This document shows positions 1 to 62,359 of a stretch of DNA of 64,000 nt, piece after piece; position 1 is the first letter of the stretch; every line of letters starts with the position of its first letter. Location: assembly GCF_029953285.1 (NCBI RefSeq), contig NZ_JASAOI010000010.1, positions 1 to 64,000 of the forward strand. The letters are read 5' to 3'. The translations under genes and the position numbers were made by a program. The DNA comes from Yinghuangia seranimata. Its GTDB lineage: Bacteria; Actinomycetota; Actinomycetes; Streptomycetales; Streptomycetaceae. Under the pieces are notes generated by a model that did no database searches, was not told the origin of the DNA, and saw nothing but the letters and a program-made list of their open reading frames with translations.

Positions 1-463
1 AACGGCAATATCTTGCCGTTTCCGTCTCTTGAAAACCGTTCCCGGTAAGGGGGCGGACGGCCGCAGCCCGGCGCCGCACCCGACCGACACCGCCCGCCCG
101 GCCACCGCGCTGGGACCGCAGCCCGGCGACGCGAACGAGACCACGCGCGCCTTCACACCCCGCGCCCCTCCCGATAGCTGCCGGGTTTTCTGCGCGGACG
201 GGCGGCTGTCAAGCCGCCCCCTCGAACACGTCACAGGCCGCCGGGACTTCGATGACCCCACCGCGGCTTGACAGCCGGTCGGCCGCGCGGACCATCAAAA
301 GTCGGGAGGGGCGCCAGGACACCGCCGGCAGACGGGTCAGGGACGGTGCAGGTCTTTGACGTCCACGCCGCGACGGGCGAGCCCCGCAACGCAGACGGCG
401 GCTGGCTCGCACGTCCGCGACGCGACTCCGCGACGGAGTGGGCCGAATGCCCCGAACCCCGCC
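1..463. other. Gene-free stretch holding one copy of a long dispersed repeat
   Basis: No credible gene lies here. The stretch opens with an inverted repeat (CGGCAA at 3-8, TTGCCG at 13-18) and contains palindromic element copy A (162-314). Almost the whole stretch up to about 400 can be aligned by eye with 62,030-62,440, including the sequences on both sides of the palindromic element, so it is one copy of a roughly 400-bp repeat cut by the window edge. The short ORFs here are explained by GC-rich chance. Confidence 0.75.
162..314 (-). repeat. MITE-like palindromic element, copy A
   Basis: The ends are perfect 13-bp inverted repeats: GCGCCCCTCCCGA at 162-174 and its reverse complement at 302-314. 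An inner perfect 15-bp inverted repeat, CGGCTGTCAAGCCGC, lies at 203-217 and 263-277. The same architecture occurs at 37,101-37,251, 61,691-61,847 and 62,205-62,359. A short conserved motif just outside (GTGCAGG near 346-352; reverse complement of the TGCACCG motif beside copies B and C) gives this copy minus orientation. It carries no ORF and lies beyond the 3' end of the fur-type gene. It is probably a non-autonomous mobile or REP-like element; no mobilising enzyme is visible. Confidence 0.8.
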
Positions 464-991
464 CTACTGCCACCACGCCGTCGGGGCGTCCGGTCGGGGT
501 TTGCGGTACCGCAGGGAGTCGAAGCAGCTACGGCACACGCCGGTCAGCGCCGCGCCCGTCGGGATGAGCCGGAAGCCCGAGCGCTCCACGAGGTCGGCCG
601 CGACCGGGTCCAGCAGGTCGCCCGGGGCGCGTTCGACACGGCCGCAGTCGCGGCACACGAGGTGGACGTACGTGCCCGCCTCGCCCAGCTGGTACGTGGC
701 GGCGTCCTGACCCATCCTGGTCTGGACGACGAGACCGAGCCGCTCCAGCGCGTCCAACGCCCGGTAGATGGTGGTGCGGTGGACGCCGGGGGCGGCGCGG
801 TTGACCTCGGCGAAGATCTGGTCCGCGGTCAGGAATCCGGACGTGTCGGCCAGCACCCGCAGGACCGCGGTGCGGGCGACGGTGACGCGTTCACCGTGCG
901 CACGGATGCGCGCAACCGCCTCGGCCACGACCCGGTCGGCCGTCTCGGCGTCGTCGGGGGCGGGGGTGGGGGGTGGCGATCCGTCGTCCAT
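464..991 (-). CDS. Fur-family metal-responsive transcriptional repressor
   Basis: A 175-aa Fur-family regulator that should bind DNA as a metal-loaded dimer. The N-terminal winged helix includes TADQIFAEVNRAAPGVHRTT then IYRALDALERLGLV, the family's recognition-helix region. The dimerisation half has YVHLVCRDCG and a second CRSC motif, giving two CxxC pairs for structural zinc. The ATG at 991 is preferred over upstream in-frame codons because Fur homology begins just after it and a palindromic operator directly abuts it. It is divergent from cobG with 67 bp between them, so it likely controls itself and cobG. The sensed metal (Fe, Zn, Ni or Co) cannot be told from sequence; the B12 context makes cobalt or iron attractive, but that is inference. 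Confidence 0.9.
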   Translation of the reverse strand: MDDGSPPPTPAPDDAETADRVVAEAVARIRAHGERVTVARTAVLRVLADTSGFLTADQIFAEVNRAAPGVHRTTIYRALDALERLGLVVQTRMGQDAATYQLGEAGTYVHLVCRDCGRVERAPGDLLDPVAADLVERSGFRLIPTGAALTGVCRSCFDSLRYRKPRPDAPTAWWQ

Positions 992-1008
992 ATGCAACAG
1001 TGTTGCAT
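992..1008. promoter_or_regulatory. Perfect palindromic operator in the fur-cobG divergent region
   Basis: ATGCAACA-G-TGTTGCAT is an exact 8-1-8 inverted repeat that touches the start codon of the Fur-family gene (991) and ends 50 bp before cobG. Its TGCAA...TTGCA arms resemble operators reported for some Fur-family members such as Nur boxes. Its position suggests repressor binding that blocks the divergent promoters. The assignment to this regulator is inferred from adjacency. Confidence 0.7.
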
Positions 1009-1058
1009 CTAGGCGGACCGCGGGCGAGGCGGGGCGACGCGAGGGGAGGTGCGGCGGC

Positions 1059-2864
1059 ATGACGACGGACGAGCGGGCGGCGGCAGCCGTGGTGACGGCT
1101 CCCCCGGCAGCGGCCTGCGCGGCCGCGGCACCGGCGGTCGACACAACGCCCGACCCGACGACCCGCCCCGCGGCCGTCCCGACGACTGACGAGACGACCG
1201 AGCCGATGACCGAGCCGATGACCGGCCCGGCGACCGGCTCGATCACCGACGCGACGGCGAACGCCGAGGCGGCACCGGGTGCGTCGCAGTCTGACCGTAC
1301 GCATGAGGCCGCCGTCCGCACTCGCCCCGACGCGTGTCCCGGCACCATCGACGCCGCGCCGGCCGACGACGGGCTGATCGCCCGCGTCCGCCTGCCGGGC
1401 GGGCGGCTGAGTGCCGCCGGCCTGCGCGTGTTGGCCGCGTGTGCCGCCGAACTCGGTACCGGGGAGCTCGACCTGACGGTGCGTGGGAACGCCCAGCTGC
1501 GCGGACTCGACGAGACCGGCGTCCGGGCCCTCGCTGGACGGCTCGCCACAGCAGGGCTCTACCCGTCGGCGACCCACGACCGGGCCCGGAACATCGTCGC
1601 GAGCCCGTTCGCGGGAGTGGGGCGCGACCCGCGGGCGTACGTGGACGCCGAGGCGATCGTGACGGCGCTGGATCAGGGCCTGTGCGACGACCCTCAACTC
1701 GGCGTGCTGCCAGGACGGTTCCTGTTCGCGGTGGACGACGGCGGCCTGCCGGTCGCGACCGCCCGCCACGACGTCGCGCTGGTGGCTGTCGGCCCCGACG
1801 AGCTCGCGTTGGCCGTGGGCGGCGTCGACACGGGCATCCGCGTTCCCGAACACGAAGCCGCCCACGCCGCGTTGCAGGCCGCCCGCGCATTCCTCCGCCT
1901 GCGCGGGTCGGCAGGCGAGGCCCACGGAGCCTGGCACGTCCGCGAGTTGCCTGGCGGCGGTGAGTCGCTGGCTGACGCCCTGCGCGGCGGCGACGAGACC
2001 GTTGCCGGGCGCAGCGCCCAGACGCACAGGCACGGGCACAGGCACACGGACACGCACACGACAGCCACCTCCAACGATGCGGAATCAGCCGCACAGGGAC
2101 GGGCGACCGCCGACCGTGCGGCCGCCGGCACGCGCCAGGGCCTCGCGGCCCAGTCCACTCCGCCCAGCCTTACCCCCGGCGCCGCCGAACCGGCCGCGCA
2201 GGCGCAGACGATCGCAAACGCCGCGGCCGCCCAGGCGCACCTCGGTCCCGCGTCCGAGTCCATGCCGGCCGGCCCCACGTCCGCCGCTGCGGAAACGGCT
2301 GCGCGAGGTCACGCGTTCGCCAGCCTCGCTTCCGCCGACTCGTACCCCGGTCCCGCATCCGAGTCCACGCCGCCTGGCCCCGCGTCCAACCCTGCGCCCG
2401 CCGTCCTCTTCCGCCCTCGCGTCGAACCGCCCGTCGGGGTCGTCCGGCAGCGGGACGGCCTGGCCTCTGTCTCGGTGCTCGTGCCGCTCGGGCGGCTCGG
2501 TCAGGCGCAGCTCGTGCTGCTCGCTGACCTGTGCGACCTGCACGGCGCCCGGCTTCGGGTGACCACCTGGCGTGGGGTTGTGCTCGTCGATGTGTCGGCC
2601 GGTGTTGCCGATCAGGTCGCTGCTGCGCTGGAGGCTGCTGGGCTGCCGGCTGATCCCGCCTCGCCGTGGCGGGCGGTCAGTGCGTGCAGCGGGGTCGGTG
2701 AATGTCGTCGGGCTCGGGCGGATGTCCGGGGGATGGCACGGGCGTTCGTCGCGTCCGGGGAGGCGGATCCCGTCCGGGCGGTGCACTTTGCGGCGTGTGA
2801 GCGCGGTTGCGGCAAGCCGCCCGGTGCCGCGCTGCGGGTCGTCGACGAGCCGCCTCCGCCCTGA
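1059..2864 (+). CDS. cobG: Precorrin-3B synthase with long low-complexity, His-rich insert
   Basis: CobG is a nitrite/sulfite-reductase-like Fe-S protein that hydroxylates precorrin-3A at C20 and forms the gamma-lactone in the oxygen-dependent B12 route. The N-terminal half has a ferredoxin-like reductase domain (GELDLTVRGNAQLRGLDETG, about residues 135-155). The C-terminal half carries the cluster cysteines CSGVGEC (about 541-547) and CERGC (about 579-583). Start: ATG 1059 with GGGGAGG 8-9 bp upstream; the frame is open further up but antisense to fur. At about 600 aa it is much longer than usual CobG (roughly 350-450). The excess is an Ala/Pro-rich segment (about 300-455) with a THRHGHRHTDTH tract and imperfect GPASES repeats, plus a disordered 100-aa N-terminus. 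cobH follows in the same direction. Confidence 0.88.
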   Translation: MTTDERAAAAVVTAPPAAACAAAAPAVDTTPDPTTRPAAVPTTDETTEPMTEPMTGPATGSITDATANAEAAPGASQSDRTHEAAVRTRPDACPGTIDAAPADDGLIARVRLPGGRLSAAGLRVLAACAAELGTGELDLTVRGNAQLRGLDETGVRALAGRLATAGLYPSATHDRARNIVASPFAGVGRDPRAYVDAEAIVTALDQGLCDDPQLGVLPGRFLFAVDDGGLPVATARHDVALVAVGPDELALAVGGVDTGIRVPEHEAAHAALQAARAFLRLRGSAGEAHGAWHVRELPGGGESLADALRGGDETVAGRSAQTHRHGHRHTDTHTTATSNDAESAAQGRATADRAAAGTRQGLAAQSTPPSLTPGAAEPAAQAQTIANAAAAQAHLGPASESMPAGPTSAAAETAARGHAFASLASADSYPGPASESTPPGPASNPAPAVLFRPRVEPPVGVVRQRDGLASVSVLVPLGRLGQAQLVLLADLCDLHGARLRVTTWRGVVLVDVSAGVADQVAAALEAAGLPADPASPWRAVSACSGVGECRRARADVRGMARAFVASGEADPVRAVHFAACERGCGKPPGAALRVVDEPPPP

Positions 2865-2954
2865 CGATTGCCCCGACCATGCGCTGAGCGTGGTCGATCC
2901 GACCAACCCCCTGACCCACCCGTCGAGTTCCCCGTACGAGAGGTTTCCCCACCC

Positions 2955-3581
2955 GTGGACGACTGGCTGAAGGACGGCGCCGAGATCTACCGCCGCTCGT
3001 TCGCGACCATCCGTGCCGAGGCCGACTTGAGCCGGTTCCCGGAGGACGTCTCGCGGGTCGTGGTCCGCATGATCCACGCGTGCGGCATGACCGACCTGCC
3101 GTCCGACGTCGGGTTCCACCCCGACGTGGCCCGCGCGGCGAGCGACGCGTTGCGGGCCGGGGCGACGATCCTGTGTGACGCGCAGATGGTCGCGTCGGGC
3201 GTCACGCGGGCGCGGCTGCCGCGCGACAACCAGGTCAAGTGCCTGCTGTCCGACCCGCGTGTGCCGGCGCTCGCCGCCGAGCAGGGCACGACGCGTAGTG
3301 CCGCCGCCGTCGACCTGTGGGGCGACGACCTGGCCGGTGCGGTCGTCGCCGTCGGCAACGCGCCCACGACGCTGTTCCGGCTCCTCGAACTCCTCGACCA
3401 GGGCGCGCCCGCGCCCGCGGCGATCATCGGCGTGCCGGTCGGCTTCATCGGCGCCGCCGAGTCGAAGCAGGCGCTCGCCGAACGCGCGGGCGACATCCCG
3501 TTCCTCGTGGTGCACGGCCGTCGCGGCGGCAGCGCGATGGCCGCCGCCGCGCTGAACGCGATGGCCAGCGAGAAGGAGTAA
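2955..3581 (+). CDS. cobH: Precorrin-8X methylmutase
   Basis: CobH/CbiC moves the C11 methyl group to C12, turning precorrin-8X into hydrogenobyrinic acid. The 208-aa product matches the family length. It starts at the typical [20 protein letters not shown] and has the conserved [13 protein letters not shown] segment, where the His fits the catalytic position, followed by [15 protein letters not shown] and the [27 protein letters not shown] segments. GTG 2955 was chosen because GAGAGG lies about 11 bp upstream and family homology starts immediately; the extra upstream codons look like leader. It sits between cobG and cobIJ, all on the plus strand with 90-100-bp gaps. Confidence 0.93.
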
Positions 3582-3682
3582 CCGCGGGCACCCGTCCCGC
3601 AGCACGCAGCCCGCGCGCGCCGCCCCGCACCGCCGCACCCCTCGTCCGACCCGACCGTACGTCCCGACCCGCCGGAGCCTCC

Positions 3683-5275: not shown

Positions 5276-5318
5276 CGCAGGGGCCTGGCGGCCGTGCGAG
5301 CCCGACGACGGCAACGGC

Positions 5319-5344
5319 CGGGGCGGCGCGACAAAGCCGCCCCG
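5319..5344 (+). terminator. Hairpin after cobIJ
   Basis: CGGGGCGGC (5319-5327) pairs perfectly with GCCGCCCCG (5336-5344) around an 8-nt loop, 44 bp after the cobIJ stop. There is no U-tract, as is usual for GC-rich actinomycete terminators. Termination is inferred from structure and position only. Confidence 0.5.
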
Positions 5345-5414
5345 CACAGCGGCTGCGCAACGACGGGCGCGACAGTCTGCTGCCCCGCGCCAACACCCCT
5401 CACGAGCGCTCCGC

Positions 5415-5504
5415 GAACTGAACTCGGAGACCGGGCGCATGCACACGCTGCTGTTCGTGGGCTCGTCGACGACCCGCACCTGCCCACGCCGCTACCTGGC
5501 CTGA
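5415..5504 (+). pseudogene. Decayed duplicate of the cobJ 3' end
   Basis: Thirty codons including the stop mirror the end of cobIJ: MHTLLFVGSSTTRTCPRRYL here against MRTLLIVGSSTTRTYPRP followed by the final RRYPA in the gene. About 11 codons present in the intact gene are missing. There is no start or ribosome site and no upstream methyltransferase sequence, so it is a remnant. The divergence indicates an old event. Confidence 0.75.
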
Positions 5505-5644
5505 CGCGCGGCCGCGCGGCCGGGTCCGGTCGACGGCGGGACAGGTGTGGAACAGTGGTCAGCGAAATGCCTGGATTGACGGGGTTGAGTCGAGCGGGGC
5601 GGGACGACGGCCGCCGAGCCGAAGCCCCACGCAGCGGACGCACG

Positions 5645-11333: not shown

Positions 11334-12099
11334 GGGGATGCCTCCTCCGTCGTACAGCAGTTCCGACGCGCATCACAGCAGCTCGGGCAAGAGGAAGGAA
11401 GGGAGGACACGCGCACGCACGGTGCCCCCGACGAACCCACACGTCAACGCTCCGCGCCGGAACGGGTGATGCCACCAGACAAAGAACCCGACCGCGGGGC
11501 GCCGGGGGCGACGCGCCGCGGGGCGAGGCGACGTAAGGCGCGGGGCGACGCGAGGCGGGGCGACGCAAGGCGGCGAGGCAGAGCGGGGCGCGGCGGGGCG
11601 GGGCAGACCGGGGCTGCGAGGCAGAGCGGGGCGGGGCGGCACGGGGCGAGGCGGCACGGGGCGAGGCGAGGCGAGGCAGCGCGGCGCGGCGCGGCGCGGG
11701 GCGGGGCGGGGCGACGTGGGTTCGGGGGGCGGTTGGCGGCTTCGGGCGCTGTCGGTGCCGTTGGCGGTTCTGGGGCGTCGGGTCCGGCTGCGGACGCGCC
11801 GGCAGGCCGCAGCTGCTCGCGCGGGTGCGAGGACGCGGTGCCGGGCTGCAAGGGTGCGGCGCTGCCGAGTTCCCCGTGCCAGCCGCCGCTCAGCAGCCGG
11901 CGGCGCGGTTATGGGCGCGGCATCAGGAACTGTGGCTGCCCTGGTGGGTGGCCTGGCGGCGGATCCGCGCGGACGTGGCATCGATGGGTGTGGTGCGCGA
12001 GTGCCCTGCGGACGCGATGGCAGGCCCAGGCCGACGTTGGGGTGCGTGGGCGCAGGGGCCGGCCGGGGGTCTGTAGGAGGCCTGGCATGATCGTCTGGC
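11334..12099. other. 766-bp region with degenerate G-rich repeats
   Basis: No gene is supported. From about 11,500 to 11,720 the plus strand is an almost pyrimidine-poor run of GGGGCGAGGCG- and GGGGCGGGGC-like units (simple-sequence expansion), which creates long but meaningless ORFs. Promoters for the alcohol dehydrogenase (leftward) and the membrane protein at 12,100 (rightward) should lie at its edges. Confidence 0.6.
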
Positions 12100-18256: not shown

Positions 18257-18897
18257 GCGGCGGGTCCTTCCGGCTTGACCGCGACCCACTGCGTCACGGG
18301 CATGAGCGGCCGCCAGCCGGTGAACTTCCCGACCGGAGCCGAACGGCTGATCTGTATGCGCGTCAGGTCGCCGCCCAACGCGTAGCGGTGGCGCACGAGT
18401 TCGGCCTCGGTCTCCGCAGTCACCGCGTTGGCCACCAGCCGCCCGCCGGGGCGCAGCGCGGCCCAGCACTTCTCGACCACGCCGGGCACGGTCAGGCCGC
18501 CGCCGACGAACACCGCGTCGGGCGGGTACGCGACGGTCAGCCCGTCGAGCGCGGCGGGCGCGGTGCCGGTGACCAGGACGAGGCCGCGCGCGCCGAGGGC
18601 GTCCGCGTTGGCGCGCACCCGCTCGGCCCGCGCCGTGTCGGCCTCGACGGCGACGGCGCGGCACGACGGATGGGCGCGCATCCACTCGATGCCGATGCTT
18701 CCGCTGCCCGCGCCGATGTCCCACAGCAGTGCGCCGGCACGCGGCGCGAGCGCGGCGAGGGTGACGGCGCGTATCTCACGCTTGGTCAACTGGCCGTCGT
18801 GGGCGTACGCGTCGTCGGGAAGGCCCGGCACGAGGGTGGCGACCGGCTCGCGCGGGTGCCCGGCCTCCGGGGCGGATCCCCCCGCGGCCTCAGCCAT
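18253..18897 (-). CDS. cbiT: Precorrin-8W decarboxylating methyltransferase (CbiT half of CobL)
   Basis: The 214-aa protein matches only the C-terminal half of Cob[21 protein letters not shown], then the SAM-binding [39 protein letters not shown] and [15 protein letters not shown]. CbiT methylates C15 and decarboxylates the C12 acetate. The usual N-terminal CbiE domain (C5 methylation) of the ~400-aa CobL is absent. The first 30 residues are a short non-homologous leader, and upstream DNA is the end of cobN. ATG 18,897 overlaps the cobN 3' end by 8 bp. CbiE must be supplied elsewhere or the step handled by another enzyme. Confidence 0.9.
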
Positions 18898-21800
18898 TCC
18901 CGCCGCCGTCCCCGTCTATGCCGCCCTCCAGGTCGCCCTCGACCTCCAGGTACGCCTCGCGCAGCCCGTCCAGTGTGGCCGCGTCCGGCTTGGCCCACAG
19001 CCCGCGGTCGGCGGCCTCGATGAGGCGTTCCGCGATGCCTCGCAGCGCCCACGGGTTGGCGCCGCGCATGAACTCGCGGTTGGCCGGGTCGAGGACGTAC
19101 TCGGCGGCGAGCTTCTCGTACATCCAGTCCTGCACGACGCCGGTGGTCGCGTCGTAGCCGAACAGGTAGTCCACGGTTGCGGCGAGCTCGAACGCGCCCT
19201 TGTAGCCGTGCTTGCGCATGGCCTCGATCCAGCGCGGGTTGACCACGCGGGCGCGGAACACGCGCGCGGTCTCCTGCTCGAGCGTGCGCGTGCGGACCGC
19301 GTCCGGCATCGTCGAGTCGCCGATGTACGCGGCGGGCGCCGTGCCGGTGAGCGCGCGCACGGCCGCGACCATGCCGCCGTGGTACTGGAAGTAGTCGTCG
19401 GAGTCGGCGATGTCGTGCTCGCGGGTGTCGGTGTTCTTCGCCGCGACCGCGATGCGCCGGTACGCGCGTTCCATGTCCTCGCGCGCGAACACGCCGTCCA
19501 GGCCTCGCCCGTAGGCGTAGCCGCCCCACGTCGCGTACACCTCGGCCAGGTCCGCGTCGTCGCGCCACGTGCGGGCGTCGATGAGCGGCAGCAGCCCGGC
19601 CCCGTAGGCGCCCGGGCGCGAGCCGAACACGCGGGCGGTGGCCCGGCGTTCGTCACCGTGCTCGGCGAGGTTGGCGCGGACGTGCGCGCGCACGTGGTTG
19701 TCCTCGTCGGACTCCTCCAGCCCGGCGGCCAGCCGCACGGCGTCGTCGAGGAGCAGGACGACGTGCGGGAACGCGTCCCGGAAGAAGCCGGAGATGCGCA
19801 CGGTCACGTCGATGCGCGGCCGCCCGAGCTCCTCCAGCGGGATCGGCTCCAGGCCGGTGACGCGCCGAGAGGCGTCGTCCCACACCGGCCGGACGCCGAG
19901 CAGCGCCAGCACCTCGCCGACGTCGTCGCCGCTGGTGCGCATGGCGCTGGTGCCCCACACCGACAGGCCGACCGACGACGGCCATGTCCCGGTCTCCTCG
20001 CGGTACTTGGCGAGCAGCGAGTCGGCGAGCGCCTGGCCGGTCTCCCACGCGAGGCGGCTGGGCACCGCCTTGGGGTCGACGGTGTAGAAGTTGCGGCCGG
20101 TCGGCAGGACGTTGACCAGGCCGCGCAGCGGCGACCCGGACGGGCCGGCCGGCACGTAGCCGCCGTCGAGCGCGTGCAGGACCGCGTTGATCTCGTCGCC
20201 GGTGCGGTCCAGGCGCGGCACGACCTCGGTGGCGGCGAAGGCGAGCACGTCGGCGACGGCGGTGGCGACCGCCGGGCCCGCGGAGGCGCCGAGCACGGCG
20301 TCGATGACGTCGGGCGCCGCGGCCGGGTCCCAGCCGCGCTCCTCCATTCCGGAGACCAGCGCGTGCGCGGCCGCCTCGGCGTCGTCGGTCTCGCGGCGGC
20401 CGGCGGTGCCGCCCTCGACGAGGCCGAGCGCCTCGCGCAGGCCGGGGAGCGCCGCGCTGCGGCCGCCCCACACCTGGCGGGCGCGCAGCATGGCGGTGAC
20501 CAGGTTGATGCGTCCGGCGCCGGTGGGCGCGGTGCCGAGGATGTGCAGGCCCTCGCGGATCTGCGCGTCCTTGACCTCGCACAGCCAGCCGTCGAGGTGC
20601 AGCAGGAAGTCGTCGAACTCGGCCTCGTGCGGCCGGTCCCCGATGCCGAGGTCGTGGTCGAGGCGGGCGGCCTGCACGAGCGTCCAGATCTGCGCCTGCA
20701 CGGCCGGGGCCTTGGCCGGGTCGAGCGCGGAGACGTTGGCGTACTCGTCGAGGAGCTGTTCGAGCCGGGTCAGGTCGCCGTACGTCTCGGCGCGCGCCAT
20801 CGGCGGCACGAGGTGGTCGACGATGACGGCGTGCGCGCGCCGCTTGGCCTGCGCGCCCTCGCCCGGGTCGTTGACGAGGAACGGGTAGATGAGCGGCAGG
20901 TCGCCGAGCACCGCGTCGGGCCCGCACTCGGCGGACAGGCCGAGGTTCTTGCCGGGCAGCCACTCGAGCGTGCCGTGCTTGCCCAGGTGCACCAGCGCGT
21001 TCGCGCCGAAGCCGCCGTTCTCGCGCGCGGCGTCGAGCCACCAGTAGGCGGCCAGGTAGTGGTGGCTCGGCGGCAGGTCCGGGTCGTGGTAGATGGCGAC
21101 CGGGTTCTCGCCGAAGCCGCGCGGCGGCTGGATGATCAGCACGACGTTGCCGGCCCGCAGCGCCGCGAGCACGATCTCGCCCTCGGGGTCGCGCGAGTGG
21201 TCGACGTACAGCTCGCCCGGTGCGGGGCCCCAGTGCTCCTCGATGTTGGCGCGCAGCCCGACCGGCAGCGTCGCGTACCGGGCGCGGTACTCGGCGGCGC
21301 TGATGCGCACCGGGTTGCCCTCGAGCTGCGCCTCGCTCAGCCACTCGGGGTCCTGGCCGCCCGCGGCGATCAGGGCGTGGATGAGCGCGTCGCCGTCGGC
21401 CGGCTCCAGGCCGGGCAGCGCGTCGGCGCCGTCGACCGGGCCGACGTCGTAGCCGGCCTCGCGCATCGCGCGCAGCAGCGCGACCGCGCTCGCCGGGGTG
21501 TCGAGGCCGACGGCGTTGCCGATGCGGGCGTGCTTGGTCGGGTACGCCGACAGCACGACGCCGATGCGGCGCTCGGCGGCCGGGACGTGCCGCAGCTGTG
21601 CGTGCCGTACCGCGATGCCCGCGACGCGCGCGGCGCGTTCCGGGTCGGCGGCGTAGAAGGTCAGTCCGTCGGCGCCGGTCTCCTTGAAGGAGAACGGCAC
21701 GGTGATCAGGCGGCCGTCGAACTCGGGGACGGCGACCTGGGTGGCGGCGTCCATCGGGGACAAGCCGGCGTCGCCCGCCTCCCAGTCGGCGCGGCTGGTG

Positions 21801-22552
21801 GTCAGGCTGAGCGCCTGCAGGACGGTGATGTCGAGCTCGGCGAGCGCCCCGACGTCCCACGACTCGTCGTCGCCGCCGGCCGACGCCTCGGCCGGGCGCG
21901 CGCCGCCCGCCGCCAGCACGGTCACCAGCAGCGCGTCGCACTCGCCGATCGCCTCGAACAGCGCGGGCTCGGCGCCGCGCAGCGAGGCGCACCACAGCGG
22001 GACGGCGCGGCCGCCCGCGTCCTCGATGGCGTCGCACAGCGCGCCGACGAACGCGGTGTTCCCGGCGAGGTGGTGGGCGCGGTAGTAGAGCACGCCGACG
22101 GCCGGGGCGTCCGGATTGCGGGTCGACCGCTCCAGGCGGCCCCACGCCGGGACCTCGACCGGGGCCTCGAAGCCGAAGCCGGTCAGCAGCACGGTGTCCG
22201 ACAGGAAGCGGAACAGGTTGGTCAGGTTGTCGGCGCCGCCCTGCGCGAGGTACGCGTGGGCCTGCGCGCTCACCCCGGCCGGGACCGTCGCGAGCTCCAT
22301 CAGCGCGGCGTCGGGCGACTGTTCGCCGGACACCACGACGACCGGGCGCGGACCCGCCAGCAGCGCGTCGAGGCCGGCCTCCCAGGCGCGGCGGCCGCCC
22401 AGCAGGCGGACGACGACGAGGTCGGTGCCGTCCACGAGCGCGGGCAGGTCGGCGGGGGCGACGCGGGCGGGGTTGGCGAGGCGCCAGTCGCCCTCGCTCG
22501 CCTTCGCGCTGAGCAGGTCGGTGTCCGAGGTGGACAGGAAGAGGATCGTCAC
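18890..22552 (-). CDS. cobN: Cobaltochelatase large subunit
   Basis: CobN is the large subunit of the ATP-dependent cobaltochelatase that inserts cobalt into hydrogenobyrinic acid a,c-diamide. The 1220-aa length is typical. Recognisable blocks include the start [120 protein letters not shown] and the C-terminal [23 protein letters not shown] 22,552 is chosen because the longer frame runs straight through the riboswitch. The ChlI/D- or CobS/T-type AAA partners are not in the window. Confidence 0.95.
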
Positions 22553-23091
22553 GACGCCACCGCCGTCCCGCGCGAGCCGCCCAGGCGGGTGTGGATGGAC
22601 GTGGTCGTGCGCAGGGATGTGCGCGAGCGAACGCAGGACGGAGTCGTCACCGTGCGCGCCTCTCCGGGGTCCTCGCCCCATCGGACAACAGGGGTGGACG
22701 CGCAGTTCCTGACTCCCGTCCGCCGCCGTCAGGCCGGCCGCGCGAACGGTCACAGTGGCGGGACCGTCCCGGACTCGCACCGGGTTCCTGGCCACGCCCT
22801 CCCCGCACCGGCGGAGGCCGATGCGGGGTCAGCATCGCGCAGCGCCGGACGCTCCTGCAAGTCACCGGCGCCGCCGGACGGTGTCGGTTCCGCCACGCCG
22901 GCGGCGGTGCGCCGGACGCCCGCCCGGACCGCGCGGAGGCTCCCGTCAGCGGCGACGTTCACGGCCGGGGAGCGGCGGCGGCTGTGGCGGAGGGGCGAAA
23001 TTGTAGTCAGCGGAGGGGACTTGATGTCACGATCCGGGAAATCCGGAGAAACCGGTCCCCTCGGCAACCAACCGGGTCTAACTTCGTAGAT
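22553..23091. other. 539-bp divergent region between cobN and a plus-strand gene
   Basis: It contains the cobN leader with the cobalamin riboswitch (22,695-22,822) and the promoters of both divergent genes. No additional gene is supported. Near 23,076-23,091 a TAACTT-like -10 lies close to ATG 23,092 and no Shine-Dalgarno is visible, suggesting leaderless transcription of the plus-strand gene. Confidence 0.6.
22695..22822 (-). ncRNA. Cobalamin (AdoCbl) riboswitch upstream of cobN
   Basis: On the minus strand the RNA reads a GGCCAGGAACCC start, then CCGGTGCGAGTCCGGGACGG, TCCCGCCACTGTGACC and, 30-40 nt later, the B12-box-like GAGTCAGGAACTGCG (22,702-22,716). These are the conserved core segments (GGAA...CCGGTG...TCC...GGTCCCGCCACTGT...AGTCAGGAAC) of cobalamin riboswitches. 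It ends about 145 nt before the cobN GTG, leaving room for an expression platform. High B12 should shut off cobN-cbiT-cobM and the 103-aa gene. The exact edges are approximate. Confidence 0.93.
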
Positions 23092-27273: not shown

Positions 27274-27361
27274 GACGGGGCGACGGGGCGACGGGGCGAC
27301 GGGGCGACGGGGCGACGGGGCGACGGGGCGACGGGGCGACGGGGCGACGGGGCGACGGGGC
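27274..27361. repeat. (GACGGGGC) x11 octanucleotide tandem repeat
   Basis: Eleven uninterrupted copies of an 8-bp unit lie between the response regulator and the kinase remnant. The perfect copies imply recent slippage and possible length variation between strains. The unit length is not a multiple of 3 and the tract is non-coding. Confidence 0.9.
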
Positions 27362-27399
27362 GAGACTCCCACGCGGTGCGGCGACGAGGGGCCGGTCAG

Positions 27400-36591: not shown

Positions 36592-37023
36592 ATGAAGCGC
36601 CGCAAGGCCAAGAAGCTGTCCAATCGCCTCGTGCTGGCCGTGCAGTACGCCGACCTGCAGGCCGCCAGGCGCCTCCTGCGGGCGGGGGCCGACGCCGACC
36701 GCCCGGACTCGCACGGGACGACGCCGTTGTACGCGGCGTCGGTGCACGGCGATGCGGAGATCACCGACGTACTGCTCGCCGCGGGCGCCGACCCGAACCG
36801 CGAGAGCGGGCACGGCGACGAGGGCCTCCCGTTGTGTGCTGCCGCCTGTTGGGGGCACGACGACGCGGTCCGGGCCCTGCTGGCCGGTGGCGCCGACCCG
36901 AACCGGCGGGAGGACGGCGGGGCGGGTATGGCGCCTATCGACTGGACGACGCAGGAGGGGCTGGACTCGACGACGGAACTGCTGCGGGGGGCGGGGGCGT
37001 TCCGGCCTTTGCAGCTGATCTGA
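36592..37023 (+). CDS. Ankyrin-repeat protein
   Basis: A 143-aa protein consisting of a basic start (MKRRKAKKLSNRLVLAVQYA) and about three to four ankyrin repeats: DLQAARRLLRAGADADRPDS, HGTTPLYAASVHGDAEITDV with LLAAGADPNRESG, and LPLCAAACWGHDDAVRALLA with GGADPNRRED. AAGGA lies before ATG 36,592 and only 14 bp separate it from the ABC-F stop, so it is likely co-transcribed. It is a protein-interaction module; the partner is unknown. Confidence 0.85.
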   Translation: MKRRKAKKLSNRLVLAVQYADLQAARRLLRAGADADRPDSHGTTPLYAASVHGDAEITDVLLAAGADPNRESGHGDEGLPLCAAACWGHDDAVRALLAGGADPNRREDGGAGMAPIDWTTQEGLDSTTELLRGAGAFRPLQLI

Positions 37024-37100
37024 CGGGGTTTTGGCTGCACCGGTCCTGAGCGGCGTTTTGGCTGCACCGTTCCTGACCTGGTTCGTTTTCGGCGGCCTGA

Positions 37101-37251
37101 CGCCCCTCCCGCTTTTTGATTTTCGCTTGGACGGCCCGCGCGTCAAGGCGCGGTGGACCTTTGGTGGACAGTTGGCCTGTCCCGGGGTTCGGGAGGCGCC
37201 TTGACCCGCGGGCCGTCCGCGCTGACTACCTCGCACCTGGCGGGAGGGGCG
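37101..37251 (+). repeat. MITE-like palindromic element, copy B
   Basis: Perfect 12-bp terminal inverted repeats: CGCCCCTCCCGC at 37,101-37,112 and its complement at 37,240-37,251. The inner repeat GTCAAGGCGC (37,142-37,151) pairs with GCGCCTTGAC (37,196-37,205). The outer motif TGCACCGTTCCTGAC lies just left and GCGGGGTGTG just right, as in copy C. It sits downstream of the ankyrin gene between convergent genes. Confidence 0.8.
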
Positions 37252-37284
37252 CGGGGTGTGGTGGCTCTTGGGTTTTATTGGTCT

Positions 37285-37475
37285 GCCGGGCTGCGGTGTT
37301 GCTTCGTTTTGCGGTGCTGCTTCACCGCTCCTGGCGCTGCGCCGCCGGGCTGCGGTGTTGCTTCGTTTTGCGGTGCTGCTTCACCGCTCCTGGCGCTGCG
37401 CTGCCGGGCTGCGGTGTTGCTTAGTTTTGCGGTGCTGCTTCACCGCTCCTGGCGCTGCGCCGCCGGGCTGCGGTT
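37285..37475. repeat. 59-bp tandem repeat (minisatellite), about 3.2 copies
   Basis: Units begin GCCGGGCTGCGGTGTTGCTT at 37,285, 37,344 and 37,403, with a partial unit at 37,462. The three complete units differ at only a few positions. Each contains a small hairpin, GCGGTG-CTGCTT-CACCGC. The length is not a multiple of 3 and all forward frames differ, so it is non-coding. Confidence 0.9.
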
Positions 37476-37657
37476 TCGCTTGGGGTTCCAGGCGGGTTTT
37501 GTTGCTCGGGTTCGTTGCGCTGCCGGGCTTCGTTCCAGCGTGGGGCCGCGCCTGGTTGAGTCGGCCGGGGGCACGGCCTCGCCCCCCCATCACTTTGCCG
37601 TCACGTATGCGAATCACCAGAACTCCCTCATTGGGGGGTGTCCGCGTCACACTTGCG

Positions 37658-38098
37658 TCACCGCACCAGCCCGTCGACGTACACCCACTCCCCGGCCTCG
37701 TCGCGAACGAATCGGCTGGTCTCCTCCAGCACGCCCTCCTGCCCGCGCTCCCGATACCGCGCGCGGAACGCGACGACCCCCCGGTCGTGGAACGGCCCGC
37801 CGTCGGTCGTCGACGTGATCTCCAGCCCGAGCCACCGCGTCTTCGGGTCGAGGTCCAGCTCGTCCGGCCGCGAATCCCGATGCCAGCTCCGGACCAGGTA
37901 CTCCCGGTCTCCCACTGCATAGGCGCTGTACCGCGCCCGCATCAACCGCTCCGCCGTCGGCGCGGCCGCACCCCGGTGGTACCGCGCACAACAGTCGCGA
38001 TACGCCCCACCGTCCAACCCGCACGGACACGGATCCCCGTCGGAGACTCCGGAGGCGGCAGGAGCCTTGGAGCGCGTGTTCACCTTGCGTCGCGACAT
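37658..38098 (-). CDS. YchJ-family protein with SEC-C zinc motif
   Basis: A 146-aa UPF0225/YchJ-type protein. The N-terminal SEC-C zinc-binding motif is DPCPCGLDGGAYRDCCARYH, followed by RLMRARYSAYAVGDREYLVR, SWHRDSRPDELDLDPKTRW and VVAFRARYRERGQEGVLEET, all family signatures (NTF2-like core). The function is unknown, possibly protein-quality or zinc related. ATG 38,098 is preferred; a -10-like CATAAT lies 7 bp upstream (38,106-38,111 on the plus strand), so it may be leaderless. It is 8 bp downstream of the SMI1/KNR4-type gene and likely co-transcribed too. Confidence 0.88.
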   Translation of the reverse strand: MSRRKVNTRSKAPAASGVSDGDPCPCGLDGGAYRDCCARYHRGAAAPTAERLMRARYSAYAVGDREYLVRSWHRDSRPDELDLDPKTRWLGLEITSTTDGGPFHDRGVVAFRARYRERGQEGVLEETSRFVRDEAGEWVYVDGLVR

Positions 38099-54921: not shown

Positions 54922-54923
54922 CG

Positions 54924-55358: not shown

Positions 55359-55383
55359 GAAGTACCGCTCTGTGCGCGCTCCG

Positions 55384-55683: not shown

Positions 55684-55931
55684 GTCGGCGTCCTCTCTGG
55701 GCGGCCGGCCCGGCGCGTTCGGCGTCCGGGTCGAGCGGTGTGGTCAAGCCGGAAGATCGCGACCCATCAAGATCTAGCCCGGCGCAAGGAATCGTTCGGC
55801 TGACCGCAGGTGAACGAGAAGGAAGAGGGTGATGAACTCTCGTGCGCGGCACGCGAACTCCCTTCTCCGACAAGCCCGATCAAAAATGTGCGGGATAGCC
55901 TTCCGCTTGGTCACTTGCGAAGGGGAGAGCG

Positions 55932-58900: not shown

Positions 58901-60443
58901 GCTCGCGCCCGCGCCGTACGCGGTCGAGGACATCCCCACCGAACAGGCCCGCAGGGTGCGGTCGGTCGACCTGAGCACGTTCGGCCACCTGCTCGTGGCG
59001 GGCGCACCGCGCACCGGGCGCTCGCAGCTGCTGCGCACCATCGCGGGCGGGCTGGCCGTCGCCAACTCCTGTGCCGACGTGCACATCTACGGGCTCGACT
59101 GCGGAAACGGCGCGCTGCTGGCGCTGGAGGCGCTGCCGCACTGCGGAGCCGTGGCCCGCTCGGGCGACACCGAGCGCGCGACCCGGCTGCTCGGCAAGAT
59201 CAGCGAGGAAGTACAGCGCCGCATGGCGCTGTTCGGCGAACTGGGCTTCACCGACATCGGCGAGCAGCGCGCGCACTCGGCGCCCGCCGACAAGCTGCCG
59301 CACCTGGTCCTGCTGCTCGACCGCTGGGAGGGGTTCCAGTCGTCGCTGGGCGCCCTCAACCACGGCGACTACAACGACGTGGTCCTGCAGTTGATGCGCG
59401 AGGGCGCGAGCGTCGGCGTGCACGTGATCGTCACCGGCGACCGCACGCTGCTCACCGGGCGGATCTCGACGCTGACCGAGAACCGCATGGCGTTCTCGAT
59501 GAGCGACAAGGGCGACTTCGGACTGGTCGGCCTGCCGTCGCGCAAGGCCCCCGACACGCTGCCGCCGGGCCGTGCGTACCGCGTCGGCGCGGTCGAGCTG
59601 CAGGTCGCGCTGCTCGGCGAGGACCCGAGCGGCCAGGCCCAGGCCGCCGAACTGCGTTCCATCGCCGAGGCAGCCGACGAGCGCGACGCCGACGTCCTGC
59701 CCTCGCAGCGGCCCTTCGGCGTCGACGTGCTGCCGAACCGCATCGAGTTCCCCGCCGCGTGGGCCATGCGCGGCCGCGGCACCGCGCCCGCGCCCGGCGG
59801 GCCGCTGTGGAGCATGGTCGCCGTCGGCGGCGACACGCTTGCCGCGCTCGGGCCCGATCTCGCGCAGGGCACACCGGCGTTCGTCATCGCCGGACCCGCG
59901 CAGTCGGGGCGCAGCACGGCGTTGCTGTCGGCGGCTCGCACATACCTCACGGAGGGCACCGAGCTGATCGTCTTCGCGCCGCGTGAGTCGCCGATCCGCG
60001 AACTGCGGGAGGCGCCGGGCGTCGTGGCGATGTTCACCGGAACCGAGGTCTCCGCCGAGGAGTTCGCGATCGCGGTCGACAAGCTGTCCGGACCCGGCGT
60101 GGTGCTGGTCGACGACGGCGAACTGCTGCGCGACGTCGACGCGGGCTCCGAGCTGGTGCGGATCCCGCGCCGGTCGTCGCGACCCGACCTCGGGCTCATC
60201 CTGGCGGGAGACGCCGACGACATCTGCACCGGGTTCACCGGCTGGCAGCTGGAGGTCAAGAAGGCCCGCCGCGGGCTGCTGCTGTCGCCGCAGAACACGA
60301 TGGACGGCGACCTGATCGGGCTGCGTCTGGCGCGGTCGTTGGTGGGGCAGCCGGTTCAGGCCGGGCGAGGCGTCATGCACCTGGGGGACGGTGAACCGAT
60401 CATCGTCCAGGTGCCGATGACCCGGGCGCCGTCGGCGGCCTGA
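55932..60443 (+). CDS. eccC: Type VII secretion FtsK/SpoIIIE ATPase with FHA domain
   Basis: A 1503-aa EccC. The N-terminal ubiquitin-like/FHA region (HRLGPSTAVLGSGPDAWIRV, about 95-115) is followed by two membrane helices (about 233-275; LMALTPLLGALVMAYVMHTT). There are three ATPase modules. D1 has an intact Walker A, GLVAGTTGSGKSELLQTI (about 645-662), and Walker B LLIVIDEFAEM (about 753-763). D2 has the degenerate GAPRTGRSQ (about 1021-1029) and D3 GPAQSGRST (about 1319-1327), both with Arg in place of Lys. It recognises WXG substrates and powers export. AAGGGGAGAG precedes ATG 55,932. Divergent from the esx operon. Confidence 0.95.
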   Translation: MEIRLSLATADSEADVLVEVAPEVTVGVLAAELGREYGVSGSSGAPPALYTAGQPMDPELTVGESPVRDGVVLGVGTPVHDAPAQGVAEIHVVSGPDAGGVHRLGPSTAVLGSGPDAWIRVADPALPAEAVEIDVAVDGTVTVRALPGAEATLDGEVLDGTVEWPVRTVLVCGHTVCERAVPTFPDTALRPAEGGGGLDFNRPPRVQPLPRQRKFQIPQRPEQGDPHPLPWLMALTPLLGALVMAYVMHTTRMLFLALLSPLSMIGMYVTNKRHGRKSYRRRLAQYQQRKTSIEQQVAHATAVETLQRRAAFPDPAKAALIATGPRQRLWERRRDDPDHLFLRVGTGAMPSEVELTDPRREEHRRQDPRTLADVPVVVPLVSAGVLGVAGGGTLPRGVGRWLVAQAAALHSPMDLRICVLTDHAGGADWEWVRWLPHSRPEQDGQAVAFVGTDAESVGRRIAELLALLTTRQDALAERNGAEGRLPDPDVLVVMDGSRRLRTVPGVTQILRDGPRVGIYAVCLDADRRLLPQECGAVVEEEWYGTLRVTRSGAAPADGVRPDAVSAAWCDDLARGLAPIRDAKNEEAAGLPDSSRLLDVLELEPPTGDAIAARWALGGRSTVAVVGESFDGAFGVDLVRDGPHGLVAGTTGSGKSELLQTIVASLAVANRPDEMTFALVDFKGGAAFKDCARLPHTVGMVTDLEARLVERALESLAAELRRREHILAAADTKDLEDYQIAMRTNPSLRSLPRLLIVIDEFAEMVTQMGEYVTALVNIARRGRSLGIHLILATQRPSGAVSPEIRANTNLRVALRVTDGAESSDVIDAPDAGRISKSTPGRAYARLGATSLLPFQSARVGGRRPGLRDDETLPPPRVVELPWSALGSPLPAAPRGTTAENNDLLTDLAVLVDAVRDANTRLGIPPQHSPWAPPLPELLTPDDLAEIAAEAGARERGEALVAGAVPGAEAPAGAGARMASVGRALAAVAPGTLAPAPYAVEDIPTEQARRVRSVDLSTFGHLLVAGAPRTGRSQLLRTIAGGLAVANSCADVHIYGLDCGNGALLALEALPHCGAVARSGDTERATRLLGKISEEVQRRMALFGELGFTDIGEQRAHSAPADKLPHLVLLLDRWEGFQSSLGALNHGDYNDVVLQLMREGASVGVHVIVTGDRTLLTGRISTLTENRMAFSMSDKGDFGLVGLPSRKAPDTLPPGRAYRVGAVELQVALLGEDPSGQAQAAELRSIAEAADERDADVLPSQRPFGVDVLPNRIEFPAAWAMRGRGTAPAPGGPLWSMVAVGGDTLAALGPDLAQGTPAFVIAGPAQSGRSTALLSAARTYLTEGTELIVFAPRESPIRELREAPGVVAMFTGTEVSAEEFAIAVDKLSGPGVVLVDDGELLRDVDAGSELVRIPRRSSRPDLGLILAGDADDICTGFTGWQLEVKKARRGLLLSPQNTMDGDLIGLRLARSLVGQPVQAGRGVMHLGDGEPIIVQVPMTRAPSAA

Positions 60444-60447
60444 CCGG

Positions 60448-61614
60448 TCACCTGACGGCGCGCAGGACCACGAACTTCGGGTTGGACGCGGCGACTTCGC
60501 AGTTGCCGAACAGGCGCTTCAGCTTGACGTGGTAGCCCAGGTGGCGGTTGCCGATGACCCACAGCTCCCCGCCGGGCCGCAGCGCGGCGCGGGAGTCGCG
60601 GAACATCCGCCAGGCCACCGTGTCGGTGGTGGCCCGGTGGGTGTGGAACGGCGGGTTGTTGAGGACCAGGTCGACGCTCGCGGGCGCGGCGCCCGACAGG
60701 CCGTCGGCGACGACGAACTCCGCTTTCGCGTCCGGGGTGTTGGCACGGAACGTGGCCTCGGCGGAGGCGACGGCCGGGTAGGACTCGTCGACGAACGTCA
60801 CCCGGACGCCGGGGGTCGTGAGCGCGGCGGCGGTGCCGACGACGCCGTTGCCGCAGCCGAGGTCCACGACGTGCCCGTTCGCCGGCGGGGTCGGCAGGTG
60901 CTCGAGGAGGAACCGGGTGCCGATGTCGAGCCGGTCGGGGCAGAACACCCCGGCGTGGTTCACCACGGGGCGCCCCGCCATCACGCCGATGTCCGACGGG
61001 AGCGCGTACGTCAGCGGCCACGGGTTCGCGGGGCGGGCGAGGGCGGCGTCGGGCGTGGCGAGGATGAGCCGCGCCTTGCGCTCGGCCAACGTGGTGCGGG
61101 TCGGGCCGACGAGGCGGGTGAAGAGGTCGAGCGTCGAGGTGTGGATCTCCGTCGTCATGCCGGTACCGACGACGAGGCTGCCCTCGTGCAGGCTGGGCGC
61201 GAGGCGGTGCAGCTGGTCCTCGAGCAGCGCGAGGCTCTTCGGGACGCGGACGAGCAGGACGTCGACGCGCTCGGGCGGGGCGTCCTGCGTGGTGGTGATC
61301 CGCACCTGGTCGGGGTCGGCACCGTTGGCGGCGAGGTTGCGGCGGGTGGCTTCGGCGGTCAGGTACGAGTCGGTGACCAGCGTCGGACGGAAGGCCGCGA
61401 GTGCGGTGGTGAGGGCACCCCAACGGTCGCCGAGAACGACCACCCGGCCACCGAGGTCGGCCGCCGCGACCGGCTCCCCCTCCGGCCCGGGCAGCCCGGC
61501 GAGCCGGCGAAGCAGGTAGGCGTCGGCCGCGTCCCAGGCCCGCAGGGGATCCCGGGAGTCGTGCGGGAACCGGTCGAGCGCGAGGTCACCGGGGGACGTG
61601 CTGAAGCCGTTCAT
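60448..61614 (-). CDS. RsmC/RlmG-like methyltransferase
   Basis: A 388-aa SAM-dependent methyltransferase with the tandem-domain form of RsmC/RlmG (rRNA guanine-N2). The N-terminal half is an inactive duplicated domain (DLGGRVVVLGDRWGALTTAL). The C-terminal half has GHVVDLGCGNGVVGTAAALT, VTFVDESYPAVASAEATFRA and the catalytic NPPFH in LVLNNPPFHTHRATTDTVAW. The length fits RlmG. Convergent with eccC, 4 bp between stops. ATG 61,614 chosen; the upstream extension lacks homology. Confidence 0.88.
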   Translation of the reverse strand: MNGFSTSPGDLALDRFPHDSRDPLRAWDAADAYLLRRLAGLPGPEGEPVAAADLGGRVVVLGDRWGALTTALAAFRPTLVTDSYLTAEATRRNLAANGADPDQVRITTTQDAPPERVDVLLVRVPKSLALLEDQLHRLAPSLHEGSLVVGTGMTTEIHTSTLDLFTRLVGPTRTTLAERKARLILATPDAALARPANPWPLTYALPSDIGVMAGRPVVNHAGVFCPDRLDIGTRFLLEHLPTPPANGHVVDLGCGNGVVGTAAALTTPGVRVTFVDESYPAVASAEATFRANTPDAKAEFVVADGLSGAAPASVDLVLNNPPFHTHRATTDTVAWRMFRDSRAALRPGGELWVIGNRHLGYHVKLKRLFGNCEVAASNPKFVVLRAVR

Positions 61615-61690
61615 GATCAGGCCAGGGTATCTCGGGCGGGGGCAGACCTCTGGCCGCACCGTTCCTGGACTGCAGCGCTGTTGACGGCCT

Positions 61691-61847
61691 CCCGCCCCTC
61701 CCGCTTTTGGATTTTCCGCGCGGCCGGCCCGCGCCTCAAGCCGCACCGAACCCTCACTGTCAAAGGCGGCCCGTCCCGTGCTTCAGGGGGCGGCTTGACC
61801 CGCGGCCCGTCCGCGCTGACAACCTCGCACCTAGCGGGAGGGGCGGG
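61691..61847 (+). repeat. MITE-like palindromic element, copy C
   Basis: Perfect 15-bp terminal inverted repeats: CCCGCCCCTCCCGCT at 61,691-61,705 and its complement at 61,833-61,847. Inner CTCAAGCCGC / GCGGCTTGAC-type arms are present. The outer motif GGCCGCACCGTTCCTGG (61,652-61,668) matches copy B's flank. It lies just upstream of the methyltransferase gene start. Confidence 0.8.
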
Positions 61848-62020
61848 GAGTGTGGCGCCGCTCCCCGAGCTTTGCGCTGCTCGCCTGCGGCCCCAGCGTG
61901 GTCGCCGTGGTCGGGGGCGCCGGTTTTGACGACGCGTGACCCGCCCTCACACCCCGGACTGGATCACATATCGGCCAAATCAGTGCAATAGGGTGTCGTG
62001 ATCCCTGTTGACTTCGCGTC

Positions 62021-62060
62021 ATGTGACGGATTGGGCAAGATCTTGCCCGATCCGTCACAT
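62021..62060. repeat. 40-bp near-perfect palindrome
   Basis: Arms ATGTGACGGATTGGGCAAGA (62,021-62,040) and TCTTGCCCGATCCGTCACAT (62,041-62,060) are reverse complements with one mismatch and no loop. The central 16 bp GGGCAAGATCTTGCCC are exact. The related, shorter structure at 1-21 stands at the same distance from element copy A. It could be an operator for a dimeric regulator, a recombination site or part of the mobile repeat. Confidence 0.8.
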
Positions 62061-62204
62061 GAAAACGGTTTCCAGCACGCGGCGGGCGGACGAGGACCGG
62101 TGGCGCCGGTGCGCGGAACGCGGCCGGGCACCAGGCAGGCCGCGCGGCCACCACACCGGAACCGCAACCCGGCAACGCAACGCACCCGATGCGCCTCCAC
62201 ACCG

Positions 62205-62359
62205 CCTCCCCCTCCCGATAGTTGCCGCGTTCTTAAGCGCGGCCGGGCGGCTGTCAAGGCGCCCCCTCGAACCCGCGACAGGCCACCGGCCGAAGACCGG
62301 TCCACCGCGCCTTGACAGCCGACCGGCCGCGCGGACAATCCGAAATCGGGAGGGGGAGG
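62205..62359 (-). repeat. MITE-like palindromic element, copy D
   Basis: Perfect 15-bp terminal inverted repeats: CCTCCCCCTCCCGAT at 62,205-62,219 and its complement at 62,345-62,359. An inner perfect 15-bp inverted repeat, CGGCTGTCAAGGCGC, lies at 62,248-62,262 with its partner at 62,307-62,321. It is closest to copy A, with flank similarity on both sides. Confidence 0.82.

What the first reader, a model, noticed from the sequence alone, without database searches (positions are those of the whole stretch)
162..62359. A four-copy MITE-like palindromic repeat family
Copies at 162-314, 37,101-37,251, 61,691-61,847 and 62,205-62,359 are each 151-157 bp, end in perfect 12-15-bp inverted repeats of the form CCCCTCCCG...CGGGAGGGG, and carry an inner CAAG(S)CGC/GCG(S)CTTG inverted repeat. 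The terminal arms differ between copies yet remain perfectly complementary within each copy, so paired changes have been kept. This points to selection on the folded DNA/RNA or recent mobilisation by a hairpin-recognising enzyme. A short outer motif (TGCACCG...) orients the copies: A and D minus, B and C plus. All lie between genes and none encodes protein.
Basis: seen in the sequence. Interest (0 to 1): 0.75.

Follow-up and report, generated by a model that had tools for sequence, protein, structure and literature searches.

The report
Hairpin-ended mobile repeats crowd one genome
The four repeats are the ends of a family of small jumping-DNA-like elements, with about a hundred hairpin ends in this bacterium's genome and none at the two matching sites checked in its two closest relatives; the ends are unusually long hairpins and the enzyme that moves them is unknown.

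Summary
A covariance model finds 98 full-length copies ("arms") and 7 partial or diverged ones in this 9.8-Mb draft genome. The terminal-hairpin pattern occurs 93 times here, 0 times read backwards, and 0-1 times in 198 of 199 other family genomes.

The arm is not the element. Of 88 fetched arms, 51 lie in inverted pairs; window C and D are one pair, A is part of a pair cut by the contig end. In 21 of 24 full pairs one arm is of a distinct "T" type, the other "S". Other S arms are followed by a different right end, E2 (window B). Two congeners lack the insert at both sites tested. Stems covary: 11 compensatory changes on a tree, 0-1 in shifted controls. Two elements carry an AbiEi-like gene. 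No Y1/RAYT transposase was found.

Best reading: a lineage-specific MITE/REPIN-like mobile repeat with hairpin ends and an unknown mobiliser. Some Streptomyces carry other nested-hairpin repeats on the same CCCCTCCCG base; kinship is unproven.

The parts
1..385 (-). Element A: part of a paired element cut by the contig end; bases 1-22 are most of a centre palindrome also seen in L074
   Evidence: Window starts at base 1 of contig C73; first bases printed; palindrome in L074. Outer end near 385 is approximate, read from the outer-flank list.
162..314 (-). Hairpin arm A (S type, cluster 3)
   Evidence: (C73:163-313)
37024..37661 (+). Element B (type II): S-type left end, arm, 59-bp tandem repeats, E2 right end; left end approximate
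   Evidence: G002 has 139 bp where the window has 755 bp between aligned flanks; sequences
37020..37077 (+). Left end of B, a 27-bp unit in tandem holding TGCACCG (its first bases overlap the stop codon of the gene at 36592-37023)
37101..37251 (+). Hairpin arm B (S type, cluster 2)
37285..37481 (+). 59-bp tandem repeat (3.3 copies) inside element B
37575..37661 (+). E2 module, right end of element B; 39 matches in the genome
61650..62432 (+). Paired element C-D (type I): S arm, centre palindrome, T arm; ends approximate
   Evidence: Inverted pair; G002 has 241 bp and G001 322 bp where the window has 1132 and 1079 bp between aligned flanks; sequences
61691..61847 (+). Hairpin arm C (S type, cluster 2)
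62019..62062 (.). Centre palindrome of element C-D, 44 bp, one mismatched position
62205..62359 (-). Hairpin arm D (T type, cluster 4)
62470..62501 (.). Possible E2 remnant beyond the T end (GTCACACCTGCG direct repeats); the E2 profile did not score it
   Evidence: sequence, tandem repeat; negative

Best explanation
The four repeats are the hairpin-shaped ends of a lineage-specific family of short, mostly non-coding mobile elements. An element starts with an S end (TGCACCG-like motif, then a ~150-bp imperfect palindrome on a CCCCTCCCG/CGGGAGGGG stem). It finishes either with an inverted, diverged T-end hairpin (type I, window C-D and probably A) or with a different right end, E2 (type II, window B). 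Shown: high copy number, inverted pairing, distinct kinds of end, dispersed sites, absence at two homologous sites in two congeners, covarying stems. Inferred: the elements moved as units by an enzyme that recognises the hairpin ends, perhaps as extruded or single-stranded DNA, are tolerated best in 3' flanks of genes, and are non-autonomous. A rarer 1.9-kb form with 290-bp terminal inverted repeats (97% identical) and an AbiEi-like gene may be a fuller form; whether its protein takes part in movement is unknown.
For: 98 full-length arms plus 7 partial or diverged; 93 exact pattern matches against 0 for the reversed control. 27 inverted pairs in the fetched loci and window, all with outer ends outward (the second arm is cut by a contig end in one and diverged in two), against about 0.8 neighbour pairs within 800 bp expected by chance. 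21 of 24 full pairs join a cluster-4 (T) arm to a cluster 1-3 (S) arm, none T-T (P about 2e-4); in these 21 the partner is 64-82% identical while the + arm's best match elsewhere is 84-99%. Of 32 E2 modules, 25 lie 3' of a single S arm, 5 just outside a T arm, 2 after a diverged second arm. The insert is missing at both tested sites in G002 and G001. L053: 290-bp terminal inverted repeats, 96.9% identical, flanks unrelated outside; its protein and that of L067 are 73% identical, dN 0.19, dS 0.85.
Against: No target-site duplication found: in L053 no direct match of 6 bp or more; type II ends listed show none by eye. No transposase identified, and only one family (PF01797) was searched for. The ORF-bearing form is 2 of the 27 pairs. 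Only two sites were tested for emptiness, and loss in both congeners is not formally excluded; G001 also lacks the ankyrin gene beside site B. No movement was observed. The 40 copies scored are 79-97% identical to B (B itself aside), so the spread is not very recent. Three of 24 pairs are S-S, not S-T.
Confidence: 0.7

Rival explanations
1. The hairpins are host structures kept for function, such as bidirectional transcription terminators or 3'-end stabilisers between genes, spread by recombination rather than by a transposase.
For: Of 26 pairs with both flanking genes called, 11 lie in convergent, 14 in tandem and 1 in divergent gaps; with the 30 one-arm places (12, 13, 5) it is 23 convergent against 6 divergent (my tally; P 0.002), while the window's own gaps over 50 bp are 5 convergent and 10 divergent. 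Stems covary. Term-seq work in S. clavuligerus reports structured 3' ends without U tracts (PMC8269248, passages seen).
Against: The two tested sites are empty in congeners that keep neighbouring genes. Whole 0.6-0.9 kb units with fixed end pairing recur, more than a terminator needs. 5 of 30 one-arm places are in divergent gaps. Mobile elements are also tolerated best at 3' ends (inference).
Confidence: 0.15
2. REPIN-like elements mobilised by a RAYT (Y1 HUH) enzyme.
For: Inverted pairs of imperfect palindromes, extragenic, high copy number, compensatory changes: features given for REPINs in PMC3116915 (abstract and part 1 of 2 of section 10 seen).
Against: No PF01797 match in this draft genome. 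Arms are ~150 bp; the listing of PMC3733652 gives REPs as 20-40 bp, its title names GTAG and CGTC tags, and the arm foot here is CGCCCC or TCCCCC. Ends are of two kinds in 21 of 24 pairs.
Confidence: 0.08
3. Passive amplification: long hairpins copied by replication template switching and ectopic gene conversion, with no dedicated enzyme. Hairpin correction makes the stems complementary without selection.
For: Palindromes are prone to such events (recalled). L077, L085 and L089 carry left-end duplicates in which the arm is reduced to a short stub. In 23 of 24 pairs the two arms are not each other's closest relatives.
Against: Defined ends, S-T or S-E2 pairing and unrelated flanks are not expected from random conversion.
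Confidence: 0.07

Closest known systems
REPINs (REP doublets; PMC3116915, abstract and part of section 10 seen)
   Same: Two imperfect palindromes in inverted orientation form the unit; extragenic; high copy; compensatory changes; singles also occur
   Different: Arms ~150 bp with bulges and a variable loop region; spacer 326-471 bp in 23 of 24 full pairs and 1419 bp in L053, often with its own palindrome; two kinds of end; alternative right end E2; no Y1 enzyme found
Bacterial MITEs (review PMC10969869, passages seen; definition partly recalled)
   Same: Short, non-coding, inverted-repeat ends, many dispersed intergenic copies, empty sites in relatives; a longer ORF-bearing form with long terminal inverted repeats (L053)
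   Different: The inverted repeats are themselves long hairpins; type II elements have unlike ends; no target-site duplication seen; no transposase with matching ends known
Nested-hairpin repeats in some genomes of genus g9 (G177, G377, G489, G572, G620), with matches in Streptomyces sp. BHT-5-2 p1
   Same: 130-152 bp palindrome on the same CCCCTCCCG/CGGGAGGGG base; small flanking hairpins, 39 of 43 loop matches in perfect stems of 11 bp or more around a near-constant 15-nt loop
   Different: Interiors are not more like ours than shuffled sequence; the shared base was the search pattern itself; whole element about 290 bp, read by eye. Kinship unproven

Membership tests
MITE | Terminal inverted repeats | tested here: met
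   27 pairs of inverted arms; L053 290-bp repeats, 96.9%. Not so for the 25 type II loci, whose ends are unlike
MITE | Short, non-coding, many dispersed copies | tested here: met
   98 full-length arms; 25 of 27 pairs have no known ORF inside: my caller found one in L053 and missed the one in L067
MITE | Target-site duplication | tested here: not met
   L053: no direct match of 6 bp or more at the ends; type II ends looked at by eye only; other pairs not tested
MITE | Autonomous partner with a transposase and matching ends | tested here: inconclusive
   L053 and L067 carry an AbiEi-like ORF between matching arms; no transposase domain
MITE | Insertion polymorphism | tested here: met
   Two sites, insert absent in G001 and G002; between species, not strains
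REPIN / RAYT system | Inverted palindrome doublet in extragenic space | tested here: met
REPIN / RAYT system | RAYT (Y1, PF01797) gene in the genome | tested here: not met
   0 matches at E<=0.001; control rings in 5 of 14 genomes
REPIN / RAYT system | REP of 20-40 bp with a GTAG or CGTC tag at one end | tested here: not met
   Arms ~150 bp, feet CGCCCC or TCCCCC; rule taken from the listing of PMC3733652
Known RNA family (Rfam 15) | Match above gathering score | tested here: not met
   Only a cobalamin riboswitch in the window; nothing above gathering in L001, L053, L092
Transcription terminator | RNA 3' ends at the hairpin | not testable with these tools
   No expression data held

The most novel reading that the evidence does not exclude
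A distinct class of bacterial mobile element in this family whose ends are ~150-bp DNA hairpins on a shared CCCCTCCCG stem, recognised by shape rather than by inner sequence. Inner stems and centre palindromes are replaced while staying nearly or fully complementary, and the fuller form encodes an AbiEi-like DNA-binding protein as its only gene. The nested-hairpin repeats of some Streptomyces, unlike in inner sequence, would be a second branch.
Probability: 0.22. Interest if true: 0.78.

Novelty: new variant of a known kind. Interest (0 to 1): 0.5.

Why it matters
A high-copy mobile repeat without a recognised transposase lets one ask whether hairpin ends alone can be mobilised, and by what. 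The S/T/E2 end grammar, the AbiEi-like ORF form and the Streptomyces look-alikes give concrete candidates to test. The repeats also seem to break short-read assemblies (21 of 105 places lie within 450 bp of a contig end, with contig lengths).

Tried and rejected
Known RNA: no Rfam family (the mir-133 and mir-BART13 hits on a palindrome are far below gathering and are taken as chance). Plasmid or phage origin: no match to arm B in plasmids or phages, none to C-D in plasmids (C-D was not run against phages). No exact arm or E2 pattern in viral contigs or genome contigs (our own genome may be left out there, and only two exact IUPAC patterns were tried). Model R1 over 61 genomes: 2 match, our own included; the G002 match L031 is one diverged hairpin, and a laxer run gave only weak matches besides.

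Rejected on test: I thought the Streptomyces repeats shared an inner GGTCC...GCGCCTTG core with ours. Local alignment of 27 interiors against 30 of our 88 gave mean best score 21.7, against 20.9-22.3 for eight shuffled sets: no support.

Homologues of the AbiEi-like ORF: 47 of 297 family genomes (own included) at 1e-30, those outside our genome 34-42% identical; whether they lie between hairpins was not tested, except that the third copy in our genome (L094) has no arms. PDB: no match. NCBIfam: two weak hits far below cut-off. Pfam AbiEi_4 passes its cut-off in one of the two element ORFs; nuclease-like MTES_1575 stays below cut-off.

Literature: 9 searches; as far as their listings show, none describes these repeats. 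Open PMC papers only.
Full report
Observation. The four repeats are present as described. Copies B and A fold with z-scores of -7.4 and -4.7 against dinucleotide shuffles, 0 of 200 shuffles as good in each case; C and D were not folded alone. The window is bases 1-64000 of contig C73 of a 113-contig, 9.8-Mb draft genome, so copy A lies next to a contig end.

Copy number. A blastn search with copy B gave 68 matches, second-strand matches of the palindrome included. A covariance model from 26 copies (A2, R1) found 98 full-length places and 7 partial or diverged ones at E<=0.01, counted from its 144 rows with second-strand matches left out. That search scored 150 of 21,582 candidates, so the numbers are lower bounds. 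The pattern CCCCTCCCG-N104..134-CGGGAGGGG occurs 93 times here, and 0 times read backwards. I fetched 60 stretches of this genome around the copies; with the window they hold 88 of the 98 full-length arms. The other ten all lie within about 400 bp of a contig end; two of them (L024, L030) were held and are in A2.

The unit is bigger than the repeat. In the fetched loci and window, 27 places hold two arms in inverted orientation, always + then -, with outer ends outward. In one (L067) the second arm is cut by a contig end and in two (L069, L070) it is diverged. So 51 of the 88 arms are in pairs. About 0.8 neighbour pairs within 800 bp would be expected by chance. C and D are one such pair. A is part of another: the first 22 bases of the window are most of a centre palindrome also seen in L074.

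Two kinds of end. Clustering of the 88 arms shows that in 21 of 24 full pairs one arm is of cluster 4 (T, foot TCCCCC in most) and the other of cluster 1, 2 or 3 (S, foot CGCCCC). No pair is T-T (P about 2e-4) and three are S-S. In the 21 S-T pairs the partner is 64-82% identical, while the best match of the + arm elsewhere is 84-99%. So the two arms of such an element are not recent copies of each other. In the S-S pair L053 they are: 97%, each other's best match. A second module, E2, has 39 matches in the genome. Of 32 E2 modules in the fetched loci and window, 25 lie 3' of a single S arm (clusters 2, 5, 6, 7), 5 lie just outside a T arm, and 2 follow a diverged second arm; none lies outside an S arm. 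Window B is S arm plus E2.

Centre palindromes. Between the arms of 17 of 24 full pairs lies a palindrome of 16-31 bp per arm (loop up to 8 nt, at most one mismatch); the other 7 show none at the 12-bp limit. Several unlike sequences fill this place (TCAAAAGAACCAAATGG..., TCATGTGACGGATTGGGC..., GATCATGAGAGGTTCGCGG...).

Insertion. For C-D, aligned flanks are 1132 bp apart in the window and 241 bp in G002; for G001 the figures are 1079 and 322 bp. For B they are 755 bp and 139 bp in G002; in G001 the gap is 33 bp, but the ankyrin gene beside B is missing there too. Reading the sequences agrees. Only these two sites were tested. No target-site duplication is seen.

Spread. Model R1 over 61 genomes finds the family in ours only, plus one diverged hairpin in G002. 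Exact patterns of the arm and of E2 have no match in genome contigs or viral contigs (our own genome may be left out there). Plasmids and phages gave no match to arm B.

Stem covariation. On the 88-arm alignment 97.5% of cells pair and 167 cells change on both sides, against 65 in column shuffles and at most 35 with slid partners. But the number of pairs with such a change (8) is within the shuffles (92 of 500 as high), and so is the count of further pair types (18; 479 of 500 as high). That alignment leans to the model. On a tree built from non-stem columns, parsimony gives 11 compensatory double changes, 28 one-sided kept changes and 44 changes to a broken pair; shifted controls give 0-1 double and 50-80 broken. 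The structure is thus real and fairly well kept. Hairpin-templated correction could do this without selection.

Gene context. With both flanking genes predicted, 26 pairs lie in 11 convergent, 14 tandem and 1 divergent gaps; 30 one-arm places in 12 convergent, 13 tandem and 5 divergent (my tally). Convergent against divergent is 23 to 6, P 0.002; the window's own gaps over 50 bp run the other way, 5 to 10. This fits tolerance at 3' ends as well as a terminator role. Genes were called by my own script, not by a standard caller; it missed the ORF inside L067.

ORF-bearing form. L053 has 290-bp terminal inverted repeats, 96.9% identical, with unrelated flanks, a centre palindrome of 31 bp per arm and one 326-aa ORF. 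L067 is similar but cut by a contig end. The two proteins are 73% identical, dN 0.19 and dS 0.85. They match PADLOC AbiEi models (E 5.9e-14 and 1.7e-17); Pfam AbiEi_4 passes its cut-off in one of them, and a nuclease-like C-terminal match is below cut-off. AbiEi proteins are known as DNA-binding antitoxins (recalled), so binding to the arms is plausible but untested. The toxin AbiEii was not searched for.

Mobiliser. PF01797 (Y1, RAYT/IS200) has no match in this draft genome.

Streptomyces look-alikes. The hairpin pattern is found 7-11 times in five genomes of the large genus g9 (G177, G377, G489, G572, G620); 30 of 392 g9 genomes have any, and the reversed control gives at most 2 in one genome. 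I read 7 of 7 places in G177 and 20 of the 39 counted in five other g9 genomes (G399 included), 27 loci in all; at least one (L159) looks like a chance match. Many show a nested plan: hairpin, big CCCCTCCCG palindrome, hairpin. The small hairpins have a near-constant 15-nt loop, and 39 of 43 loop matches sit in perfect stems of 11 bp or more that differ between copies. A blastn hit places this repeat in Streptomyces sp. BHT-5-2. Interiors are not more like ours than shuffles are, so common descent is not shown. That g9 is Streptomyces, and our host another genus of the same family, is inferred from this hit and the tool's kinship labels.

Verdict. A lineage-specific, MITE/REPIN-like family with unusual hairpin ends: real, abundant and most likely mobile. 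Mobility is inferred from empty sites, end structure and copy number, not seen; the mobiliser is unknown.

Noticed in passing
window 22703-22790 (-): Cobalamin riboswitch (Rfam RF00174) upstream of a CobN/Mg-chelatase gene at 18890-22552 (-).
   Followed up: partly
window 37655-37661: The E2 end of element B (GCGTCAC) overlaps the predicted stop codon of the YchJ-like gene at 37658-37942 (-), so the insertion seems to supply the TGA.
   Followed up: no
L077, L085, L089 upstream of the arm: Duplicated left ends in which the hairpin is reduced to a short stub, as if the arm had been lost by slippage.
   Followed up: no
G000 contig ends, e.g. C47:5, C75:8, C10:63, C21:2, C29:1: 21 of 105 places lie within 450 bp of a contig end; the hairpins seem to break the assembly, so the true copy number is probably higher (lengths).
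   Followed up: partly
L157-L184: Streptomyces-type nested-hairpin repeats with a near-constant loop CTGCTTCGCTTTACG, varied perfect stems and outer GCGGTGACGG...CCGTCACCGC ends; the loop string is in no paper.
   Followed up: partly
window 27274-27363 and 11494-11713: GC-rich short tandem arrays (8-bp unit x 11.2, 100% matches; 15-bp unit x 14.5, 69% matches).
   Followed up: no
L031 (G002:C26:13092-13225): A single diverged hairpin of the same plan (CCGGCCCTCCCG...CGGGAGGGCCGG) in a congener.
   Followed up: partly
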